DNA from: Alphaproteobacteria bacterium
Lineage (GTDB): Bacteria; Pseudomonadota; Alphaproteobacteria; Bin95
Direction: 5' to 3'
DNA: 7,763 nt
Assembly (NCBI GenBank): GCA_022822125.1
Contig: JAJECF010000065.1
Coordinates: 1-7,763, forward strand
The stretch's first letter is position 1; every line of letters begins with the position of its first letter. The notes under the pieces are model-generated. The model saw only the letters and a list, made by a program, of their open reading frames with translations. It ran no database searches and was not told the origin of the DNA. A program made the translations under genes and the position numbers. Positions 6,502-7,763 of this stretch are shown piece by piece.

Positions 6502-7763
6502 ATGAACGACCTGATGCGACTTTTCGGCCAGACCGAACAGGAAGCCTCGTTCGACAAGATCCGGGTCTCGATCGCTTCGCCCGATCAGATTCGACGCTGG
6601 AGCTACGGCGAGATCAAGAAGCCGGAGACCATCAACTACCGGACCTTCAAGCCGGAACGGGACGGGCTGTTCTGCGCCCGCATCTTCGGGCCGGTGAAGG
6701 ACTATGAGTGCCTGTGCGGCAAATACAAGCGGATGAAGCATCGCGGCATCATCTGCGAGAAATGCGGCGTGGAGGTCACCCTCTCCAAGGTGCGCCGCGA
6801 CCGGATGGGCCATATCGAGCTTGCGGCCCCGGTTGCCCACATCTGGTTCCTGAAGTCGATGCCGAGCCGTATCGGCCTGGTGCTTGACATGACGCTGCGC
6901 CAGCTGGAGCGGGTGCTTTACTTCGAGAGCTATGTTGTGACCGATCCGGGCACATTTGTGATCGAGGAGGGCGTGTCTCTTGGCAGGCAGGAGTATTTTC
7001 TTCTGAGCAAGCTGGCCAAGGACCAGGACAAGCAATTAGGGGCGGAACTCGAAAGCTATGTCGTGGTAGAGCCGGGTGGATTTGATCTTGGGCAGGGCCA
7101 GGTACTGAGCAAGGACGAGTATACGCGCCTGACCAAATTGCCTCAGGATCAAAACAAGCAACTAAAGGTCGAACCGAACAGCTATGTGGTGACGGATCCG
7201 GATGGATTTGAGCTTGTGCGCGGCCAGTTGCTGAGCGAGGACGAATATCTGCGTGTAGAAGGGATGTCAGGAGAACGTGACAAGCATTTCAACGCCGGAA
7301 TTGGAGCCAAGGCGATCAAGGAGATGCTTGCCGAGATCGAACTCTCCGAGGAACGCGAAGATATGCGCAATGAATTGCGCGGGGAACTCTCGACAGAGCA
7401 ATACGAGAAACTGGAAAAGAAAATCGACGGGCTGCAAGCGGAGATGGCCAAGGTCTTTGCAAAGTCTCTGCCCAAGAATCTGACCACATGTTTCGGCCGC
7501 TTGCGCAAACAGTTGGACGAGGTATCGCGGGTCGTCCGGCGTAATAATGTCAAGGAAATACTCGACGACCTGCTTCCCGAATTGATTCAGGTCTCGGACG
7601 CCTTGCGCAGGAAGCTGGAGAAACTGCCGGACGACATGTGTCCCGACCTCTCCGAGGCGAAGCGCAAGAAGCTGGTCAAGCGGCTCAAGGTCGTCGAGGA
7701 TTTTCTCGAGTCCGGCAACCGCCCTGAGTGGATGGTCTTTACGGTGATTCCGGTCATTCCTCC
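6502..7763 (+). CDS. rpoC: DNA-directed RNA polymerase subunit beta', N-terminal 420 residues (partial), with expanded clamp region
   Basis: The 5' part of the beta' gene; it leaves the window in frame, so the catalytic NADFDGD motif is not seen. ATG 6502 has GGAG 7 bases upstream. Residues 1-142 run without gaps against E. coli as I recall it: SPDQIRRWSYGEIKKPETIN, then YRTFKPERDGLFCARIFGPV, the zinc ribbon cysteines C70, C72, C85 and C88, and HIELAAPVAHIWFLKS. After YFESYVV (140-146) the protein departs from the norm: a 42-residue module is present three times (143-268), and after DMRNEL (287-292) about 87 extra residues precede SEAKRKKLVKRLK (384-396). Conserved sequence then resumes with SGNRPEWMVFTVIPVIP. 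The segment from YFESYVV to PEWM is about 272 residues against about 98 in E. coli. The frame is open throughout and motifs on both sides match, so this is an in-frame enlargement of an apparently functional, presumably essential gene rather than damage. Bases 6961-7560 are about 53% G+C, against about 62% in 6601-6840. Confidence 0.98.
   Translation, partial: MNDLMRLFGQTEQEASFDKIRVSIASPDQIRRWSYGEIKKPETINYRTFKPERDGLFCARIFGPVKDYECLCGKYKRMKHRGIICEKCGVEVTLSKVRRDRMGHIELAAPVAHIWFLKSMPSRIGLVLDMTLRQLERVLYFESYVVTDPGTFVIEEGVSLGRQEYFLLSKLAKDQDKQLGAELESYVVVEPGGFDLGQGQVLSKDEYTRLTKLPQDQNKQLKVEPNSYVVTDPDGFELVRGQLLSEDEYLRVEGMSGERDKHFNAGIGAKAIKEMLAEIELSEEREDMRNELRGELSTEQYEKLEKKIDGLQAEMAKVFAKSLPKNLTTCFGRLRKQLDEVSRVVRRNNVKEILDDLLPELIQVSDALRRKLEKLPDDMCPDLSEAKRKKLVKRLKVVEDFLESGNRPEWMVFTVIPVIP
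6928..7053 (+). repeat. Tandem 126-bp coding repeat in rpoC, copy 1
   Basis: Residues 143-184 of beta', the first of three 42-residue units in register. Anchor residues are SYVV (143-146), P149, G150, F152, G157, L160, EY (164-165), KL (170-171), DQ (174-175) and KQL (177-179). Its front half continues directly from the conserved YFE and so is probably the ancestral junction. It shares about 20 of 42 residues with copy 2 and 15 of 42 with copy 3 (hand counts). Confidence 0.9.
7054..7179 (+). repeat. Tandem 126-bp coding repeat in rpoC, copy 2
   Basis: Residues 185-226 of beta'. SYVV (185-188), P191, GGF (192-194), GQVLS (199-203), DEY (205-207), KL (212-213), DQ (216-217) and KQL (219-221) all fall exactly 42 residues after copy 1. 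By hand count its first 23 codons match copy 3 at about 55 of 69 bases and copy 1 at about 45 of 69, while its back half resembles copy 1 more closely. This makes it the bridging unit of the duplication. Confidence 0.92.
7180..7305 (+). repeat. Tandem 126-bp coding repeat in rpoC, copy 3
   Basis: Residues 227-268 of beta'. SYVV (227-230), DP (232-233), GF (235-236), GQLLS (241-245), DEYL (247-250) and DK (260-261) keep the 42-residue register. Its back half flows into the conserved FNAGIGAKAIKEML, which matches the FDAKMGAEAI region of E. coli, so this copy carries the ancestral downstream junction. It shares about 17 of 42 residues with copy 2. Confidence 0.88.
7378..7650 (+). other. Lineage-specific helical insertion in beta' (about 87 extra residues)
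   Basis: Residues 293-383 of beta' replace a linker that is only about four residues in E. coli, between DMRNEL and SEAKRKKLVKRLK. The stretch is highly charged and looks mostly alpha-helical: TEQYEKLEKKIDGLQAEMAK (298-317) has a spacing of L and I suited to a short coiled coil, then SLPKNLTTCFGRL (322-334), then an amphipathic part with VSRVVRRNNVKEILDDLLPE and LIQVSDALRRKLEKL ending near 375. Cysteines at 330 and 380 are not arranged as a metal site. I recognise no known domain. It lacks the block motifs of an intein and any transposase-like sequence. Confidence 0.75.

What the first reader, a model, noticed from the sequence alone, without database searches (positions are those of the whole stretch)
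6928..7305. The beta' clamp-toe module is present three times in tandem
Three 42-residue units follow each other in perfect register (SYVV at 143, 185 and 227; EY at 164, 206 and 248; K at 177, 219 and 261), where the E. coli and typical alphaproteobacterial beta' I recall have one. In E. coli structural work this part of beta', just after YFESYVV, is known as the clamp toe, on the outer face of the clamp near the sigma70 non-conserved region, and is a contact for regulators such as Crl. A triple copy would build an extended arm there and could add a docking surface for sigma, a transcription factor or a phage-type regulator. Large lineage-specific beta' insertions between conserved regions A and B are known in Thermus, so the location tolerates growth, but a tandem multiplication of the native module is unusual as far as I know.
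Basis: partly seen in the sequence, partly recalled or inferred. Interest (0 to 1): 0.78.

Follow-up and report, generated by a model that had tools for sequence, protein, structure and literature searches.

The report
RNA polymerase with a tripled toe
In a few bacteria, apparently sponge symbionts, the main RNA-making enzyme carries three copies of a small surface module that their relatives have once, plus a second insert, apparently passed between close relatives by swapping part of the gene; what it does there is untested.

Summary
RpoC residues 143-268 (window 6928-7305) are three 42-residue copies of the clamp-toe module, 15-20 of 42 residues identical, beyond every shuffle. A second insert, net 87 residues, follows at 7381-7650; together they add 171 residues.

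It is rare. Of 8 held genomes of the genus, 2 have the long toe and 6 the normal one. Of 120 genomes of the phylum, 114 give an unbroken, normal-length match and 6 are uninformative. A scan of species genomes found two loci, the same two contigs. One holds a complete 1560-residue RpoC, its only rpoC match. An artefact is unlikely.

The toe segment has low GC3 (0.55-0.73 against 0.86-0.91 in flanks) and, on few codons, older synonymous divergence than its flanks. Trees of neighbouring stretches place the window with different relatives. Best reading: a diverged allele exchanged by recombination inside rpoC; a partly chimeric contig is not excluded. Function is inferred only: altered docking beside the sigma non-conserved region. 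Sigma shows no matching insert.

The parts
6502..7763 (+). 5' part of rpoC (beta' subunit, first 420 residues); runs off the window
   Evidence: Pfam RNA_pol_Rpb1_1 E 1.7e-42; best solved-structure match E 9.1e-98 to a beta' chain
6928..7053 (+). toe unit 1 (residues 143-184)
   Evidence: GC3 0.67; 16-17 of 42 identical to three sister-species toes
7054..7179 (+). toe unit 2 (residues 185-226)
   Evidence: GC3 0.62; 13-14 of 42 identical to three sister-species toes
7180..7305 (+). toe unit 3 (residues 227-268), closest to the native module
   Evidence: GC3 0.55; 22-24 of 42 identical to three sister-species toes
7306..7380 (+). native first clamp helix between the two inserts (residues 269-293)
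   Evidence: 27 residues aligned without gap to the 13 other genomes compared; GC3 0.72
7381..7650 (+). second insert, residues 294-383, 90 residues where siblings have 3; predicted mostly helical
   Evidence: GC3 0.73 for 7381-7656; helices in models (low pLDDT); no credible family match
6600..7715 (+). approximate block in which the window follows the long-toe genome G004 (and G006) rather than its near relative G001
   Evidence: site-by-site comparison with G001 and G004, tree and AU tests of 6502-6940
7714..7763 (+). tail unlike the 8 held genus genomes (GNRPEWMVFTVIPVIP instead of GSKPEWMVLDVVPVIP)
   Evidence: GC3 0.69
2286..6458 (+). rpoB; in the tree of 2500-6450 the window leaves the G001/G008 pair and stands with G002, although raw identity is higher to G001 in 7 of 8 bins
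270..2122 (+). rplA, rplJ, rplL: normal upstream gene order, about 99% like G001 up to 1999

Best explanation
This is a long-toe allele of an otherwise normal rpoC. The native clamp-toe module (E. coli beta' about 144-179) was duplicated twice long ago, probably in a lower-GC3 relative of this genus, and the loop between the two following clamp helices gained 87 residues. The toe segment then moved into a few members of the genus by recombination inside rpoC. In the enzyme it should stand out from the outer face of the clamp beside sigma domain 2 and its non-conserved region, and most likely changes how sigma or initiation and elongation factors dock there, hence promoter escape or early pausing. 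Shown: the repeats, the second insert, the patchy distribution, an intact full-length RpoC as the only rpoC match of one genome, protein-level constraint on the units, and conflicting descent along the window. Inferred: direction and donor of the transfer, and that the conflict is biological. Inferred and untested: the docking function.
For: Units. Long toe in G004 and G006, single in the 6 other genus genomes. Of 30 loci, 2 long, 27 normal, 1 without end anchor. Unbroken normal-length match in 114 of 120 phylum genomes. G006 has an open frame of 1584 codons (1560 residues from the ATG) against 1413-1415 in the five siblings with a full frame, and a single rpoC match. Constraint: over residues 143-384 window-G004 dN 0.0125, dS 0.064, window-G006 dN 0.020, dS 0.078; units alone 0.007/0.088 and 0.017/0.101. 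Import: GC3 0.55-0.73 in the toe segment, 0.86-0.91 in flanks of G004/G006, 0.86-0.89 in two sibling toes; in the shared helix 9/20 (window-G001) and 11/19 (G006-G001) same-residue codons differ, sibling pairs 7/25, 5/21, 5/24, against 22/112 and 20/112 in the preceding part. Conflict: window with G001 in 122-2400, outside the G001/G008 pair in rpoB, with G004/G006 in 6502-6940. Place and role, passages only.
Against: No donor genome was found. The shared-helix comparison rests on about 20 codons, and the 16-codon stretch after the second insert shows no such excess. Constraint is not shown for the second insert alone (window-G004 dN 0.019, dS 0.032, 6 differences), and G004-G006 differ by 4 amino-acid changes in 6 substitutions. 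Sigma of G004 and G006 has a non-conserved region of normal length and ordinary divergence. The added units are less acidic than native toes (net -4, -1, -5 against -9 and -8), which does not favour a simple multiplication of the known acidic sigma contact. Structure models are low-confidence. The AU groups were named after seeing the trees, and against G002 the last stretch gives only p 0.0475. A chimeric contig cannot be excluded for the joins.
Confidence: 0.5

Rival explanations
1. Tolerated growth: the outer clamp face accepts extra residues and the long toe has no specific role; it drifted to fixation in a few lineages.
For: Other lineages carry unrelated inserts at this site (passages); sigma shows no matching change; the distribution is patchy and rare; the second insert alone shows no clear constraint (dN 0.019, dS 0.032 on 6 differences).
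Against: Nonsynonymous change is held down over the toe segment (dN/dS about 0.2-0.25) and most in the units (about 0.08-0.17) between window and G004/G006; three units keep a strict 42-residue register; 114 of 120 phylum genomes keep normal length, so the site is not freely variable in this phylum.
Confidence: 0.3
2. Assembly or binning artefact: the repeats or the joins of the window are made by the assembler.
For: The window is a patchwork: with G001, then outside G001/G008, then with G004/G006, and its last 48 bases fit none of the 8 genus genomes.
Against: The repeats are only 58-63% identical as DNA, which an assembler does not create; the same two inserts are in contigs of two other MAGs; the study that uses these MAG labels assembled each specimen separately, though only the jk18x7 label was seen in its passages; the frame is intact. 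The confidence given is for the inserts being artefact; the joins outside the toe remain open to real doubt.
Confidence: 0.05
3. Ancestral long toe, lost by recombination with normal alleles in most species of the genus.
For: The long toe carries genus-typical residues (GAKAIK, EEREDMR), and the allele groups in 6502-6940 are shallowly separated.
Against: The five family genomes outside the genus that gave a match (G013 gave none) have one module, as do 114 of 120 phylum genomes; the codon usage of the long toe is foreign to these genomes.
Confidence: 0.15
4. Escape variant: the altered outer clamp removes or masks a docking site of a phage protein or antibiotic aimed at RNA polymerase.
For: A divergent, exchanged allele of a housekeeping gene surface is what such selection would leave (inference); the toe is an exposed contact surface (passages).
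Against: Nothing here points to such a phage protein or compound, and none was specifically searched for; no viral contig in one scan encodes a relative of the segment.
Confidence: 0.1

Closest known systems
Clamp toe of E. coli-type beta' (residues about 143-180)
   Same: Same place in the sequence and same module; contacted by the sigma70 non-conserved region (passages).
   Different: One module there, three here; a further 87 net residues after the next helix.
beta'i2 of Deinococcus-Thermus
   Same: Large insert at about position 140 of beta'; built of five sandwich-barrel hybrid motifs; role in sigma binding (passages).
   Different: 283 residues (passage), lineage-wide; here 84 residues that are copies of the native toe, in a few species of one genus. 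Shared fold not shown.
beta'i1 of Actinobacteria
   Same: About 90 residues at the same insertion point, helical (passages).
   Different: Two long helices inserted at about 140; here the helical insert lies after the next helix and the insert at about 140 is made of toe copies.
Si3 of cyanobacteria
   Same: A grown beta' insert reported to form an arch with sigma (title and start of abstract only).
   Different: Sits in the trigger loop and is described as the largest known lineage-specific insert.

Membership tests
Clamp-toe module of beta' | Follows LYFESYVV and precedes the GA(E/K)A helix | tested here: met
   Position and pattern in window and siblings; match to solved beta' chains
Clamp-toe module of beta' | Sequence similarity of each unit to native toes | tested here: met
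   16-17, 13-14 and 22-24 of 42 identical to three sister-species toes (no shuffles run for this comparison); alone the three-unit stretch reaches only E 0.042 against solved beta'
Clamp-toe module of beta' | Single copy | tested here: not met
   Three copies
Clamp-toe module of beta' | Contact with the sigma non-conserved region | not testable with these tools
   Known from E. coli papers (passages)
Lineage-specific beta' insert at the beta'i1/beta'i2 site | Insert at about residue 140 of beta' | tested here: met
   Extra units lie between residue 142 and the native unit; site
Lineage-specific beta' insert at the beta'i1/beta'i2 site | Shared by a whole lineage | tested here: not met
   2 of 8 held genus genomes
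beta'i2 (Thermus) | Repeats of the sandwich-barrel hybrid fold | tested here: inconclusive
   Predicted strands and a helix per unit at low confidence; the 50 structure matches listed of 529 are RNA polymerase entries
beta'i1 (Actinobacteria) | Two long antiparallel helices inserted at about 140 | tested here: not met
   The helical insert here starts at residue 294, after the next helix

The most novel reading that the evidence does not exclude
The clamp toe of RNA polymerase is an exchangeable surface cassette: members of one symbiont genus swap long and short toe alleles inside rpoC by recombination, giving enzymes with different sigma or factor docking within closely related populations.
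Probability: 0.3. Interest if true: 0.8.

Novelty: new variant of a known kind. Interest (0 to 1): 0.56.

Why it matters
Large beta' inserts are described as marks of whole lineages. Here an insert built by multiplying a native module is present in some and absent from other species of a single genus, in an enzyme whose neighbouring N-terminal part differs by at most one residue over 119. That gives natural matched pairs for asking what the clamp toe does, a question so far approached in E. coli through its contact with the sigma non-conserved region, and suggests that part of a core polymerase gene can differ in history from the rest.

Tried and rejected
Common feature of alphaproteobacteria: rejected. 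One search gave 0 of 385 at E <= 1e-20. Its positive control is, where G004 and G006 gave 1e-137 or better; since nothing rang, they were evidently not in that draw.

Recent DNA duplication: rejected, units 58-63% identical as DNA.

Second insert as a copy of the native helical hairpin: not supported (43 of 2000 shuffles reach the score in the most suggestive comparison, 191 and 186 of 2000 in two others). The 281-345 match to the sibling hairpin (0 of 2000) is carried mainly by the native helix.

Known domain in the inserts: nothing over a curated cut-off in Pfam, only weak hits in PHROGs.

Matching insert in sigma70: none; 314 residues between the chosen anchors in G004 and G006, 314-315 in four siblings. 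G001 and G008 gave no sigma match and are not in that count. One search picked antisense frames for G005 and G006; one search replaces it.

Phage origin: no relative in viral contigs. Eight phage-collection records match at most 52% of the query at 29-44% identity, four annotated as rpoC or beta', four without annotation.

One search used a too narrow pattern and is replaced. The first structure model (mean pLDDT 51.8) was set aside for the segment model (63.7; the other four models 49-54). Both are weak.

Papers: none of the titles listed concerns a multiplied clamp toe; the library lacks most subscription papers, so this is not proof of absence. The survey of beta' inserts by Lane et al. is known to me only as a citation; I did not read it.

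Full report
What is there. The window carries rplA, rplJ, rplL, rpoB and the first 420 codons of rpoC in normal order. rpoC starts at 6502; an in-frame upstream ATG at 6430 overlaps rpoB and gives only an extension. The three 42-residue units share 20, 15 and 17 of 42 residues pairwise; none of 20,000 shuffles per pair reached any of the scores. As DNA they are 79, 73 and 79 of 126 identical, and neither repeat finder reported them. So the duplication is real at protein level and old. Unit 3 is closest to the native toes of three sister species. The two extra units add 84 residues.

A second insert. Between the helix that follows the toe and the next conserved helix, siblings have 3 residues where the window has 90 (residues 294-383, 7381-7650), a net gain of 87. 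With the 84 above this makes 171, exactly the difference between the 1584-codon frame of G006 and the 1413-codon frames of G001, G002, G003 and G005 (G007 has 1415, G008 is cut by its contig end). It has no credible match in Pfam, PHROGs or solved structures and is predicted mostly helical with low confidence. A duplication of the native hairpin was tested and is not supported.

How common it is. The window's assembly is not held; the nearest genome, G001, shares half its sampled words. Of the 8 held genomes of that genus, G004 and G006 have both inserts and the other 6 have neither. Of 6 further genomes of the family, 5 gave a match and all 5 are single; G013 gave none. Of 30 loci read through, 2 are 281 residues long between anchors, 27 are 108-110, and 1 lacked the end anchor. 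Of 120 genomes drawn from the phylum, 114 (G001 and some genomes among them) gave one unbroken match of 699-747 bases to a single-toe query, which leaves no room for such an insert; 1 match was cut short and 5 genomes gave none. The tools name no phylum; the two named contigs are labelled Alphaproteobacteria. The specific search gave 0 of 385 genomes of the class at E <= 1e-20, with G004 and G006 as positive controls. In the large protein collection, none of the 141 proteins fetched (the best 120 of 7,999 scored, and all 21 of the second search) has the tripled toe: 129 are 98-101 long between anchors, 1 (P0004) is 183 because a longer stretch is repeated, 11 lack anchors. One search, whose query was the G006-type protein itself, did not list that protein, so the collection's silence is weak evidence.

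Is it an artefact? The two named contigs belong to MAGs jk18x7bins.95 and jk18x22bins.31. [quoted passage not shown] That jk18x22 is a different specimen of that study is my inference from the label. With the window this makes three sequences. G006 carries a complete RpoC of 1560 residues and gave a single rpoC match; G004 also gave a single match, but its contig ends within rpoC. Over residues 143-384 window and G004 show dN 0.0125 and dS 0.064, window and G006 0.020 and 0.078. The units alone give 0.007/0.088 and 0.017/0.101. The second insert alone gives 0.019/0.032 on 6 differences, which shows no clear constraint, and G004 and G006 differ by only 6 substitutions, 4 of them amino-acid changes (all). 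The units at least are held as protein, and the insert is very unlikely to be an artefact.

Where it came from. In the window GC3 is 0.55-0.67 in the three units and 0.72-0.73 in the helix and second insert, against 0.87 before and 0.89 just after (0.69 in the last 48 bases). The whole toe region of G004 and G006 has 0.67-0.68, the single toes of G001 and G005 0.86-0.89. In the helix between the two inserts, which the genomes share, 9 of 20 (window-G001) and 11 of 19 (G006-G001) same-residue codons differ, against 7/25, 5/21 and 5/24 between sibling pairs there, and against 22 of 112 and 20 of 112 in the preceding stretch. The 16-codon stretch after the second insert shows no such excess. The numbers are small, but composition and divergence both say that the toe segment is older and of other make-up than its flanks. 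Its protein still has residues typical of this genus (GAKAIK, EEREDMR), so the donor should be a relative. The window itself is a patchwork. It is about 99% like G001 up to 1999 and 97.6% in 2000-2499. In rpoB it drops to 89-95% and leaves the G001/G008 pair in the tree to stand with G002, although raw identity is higher to G001 in 7 of 8 bins. It is identical to G004 over 6700-6927 and 96-99% in the toe, then unlike the 8 genus genomes in the last 48 bases. AU tests reject placing the window with G004/G006 in 122-2400 (p 8e-90) and in rpoB (3e-90), with G001/G008 in rpoB (8e-5), and with G001 in 6502-6940 (9e-5; 0.0014 with G001 and G008); against G002 the last stretch gives only 0.0475. These groups were named after the trees had been seen, which makes the weaker values less certain. 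Recombination explains this; a chimeric contig of a strain-rich community would too, and I cannot tell them apart for the joins outside the toe.

What it may do. From papers (passages only): in E. coli the globular toe at beta' 143-180 is contacted by the non-conserved region of sigma70 in the closed complex and during escape, through an acidic toe surface, and changes at the interface affect escape and early pausing. A review reports that one group sees Crl tether sigmaS through the toe; another finds that contact very small. Inserts at about position 140 exist in Thermus (beta'i2, role in sigma binding) and Actinobacteria (beta'i1), unrelated to each other. By place, the long toe should enlarge the surface beside sigma. 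Against a simple version of this: sigma of G004 and G006 has no matching insert and ordinary divergence, and the added units are less acidic than the native toe. The segment model gives strands and a helix in each unit, and the 50 structure matches listed of 529 are RNA polymerase entries, but its mean pLDDT is 63.7 and the other four models lie at 49-54; I draw no fold from it.

Verdict. It is a new variant of a known kind, a beta' insert at a site known to accept inserts, unusual in being built from the native module and in being present in only some species of one genus. Its role is inferred, not shown.

Noticed in passing
window 7714-7763: The last 48-50 bases fit none of the 8 genus genomes (best 41 of 50 to loci L084, L073, L022, L017): either a further recombination point or a wrong contig end.
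   Followed up: partly
window 2400-6500: In the rpoB tree the window leaves the G001/G008 pair, while the upstream ribosomal genes are about 99% identical to G001.
   Followed up: partly
L064 (G004 C321): G004 holds a second sigma70-like gene with a diverged non-conserved region; G004 has 9% estimated contamination, so it may be foreign.
   Followed up: no
P0004, first part: A metagenome RpoC fragment repeats a longer stretch including the part before the toe; it looks like an assembly duplication, not a toe multiplication.
   Followed up: partly
window 6430-6501: An in-frame ATG 72 bases upstream of the rpoC start overlaps the end of rpoB.
   Followed up: no
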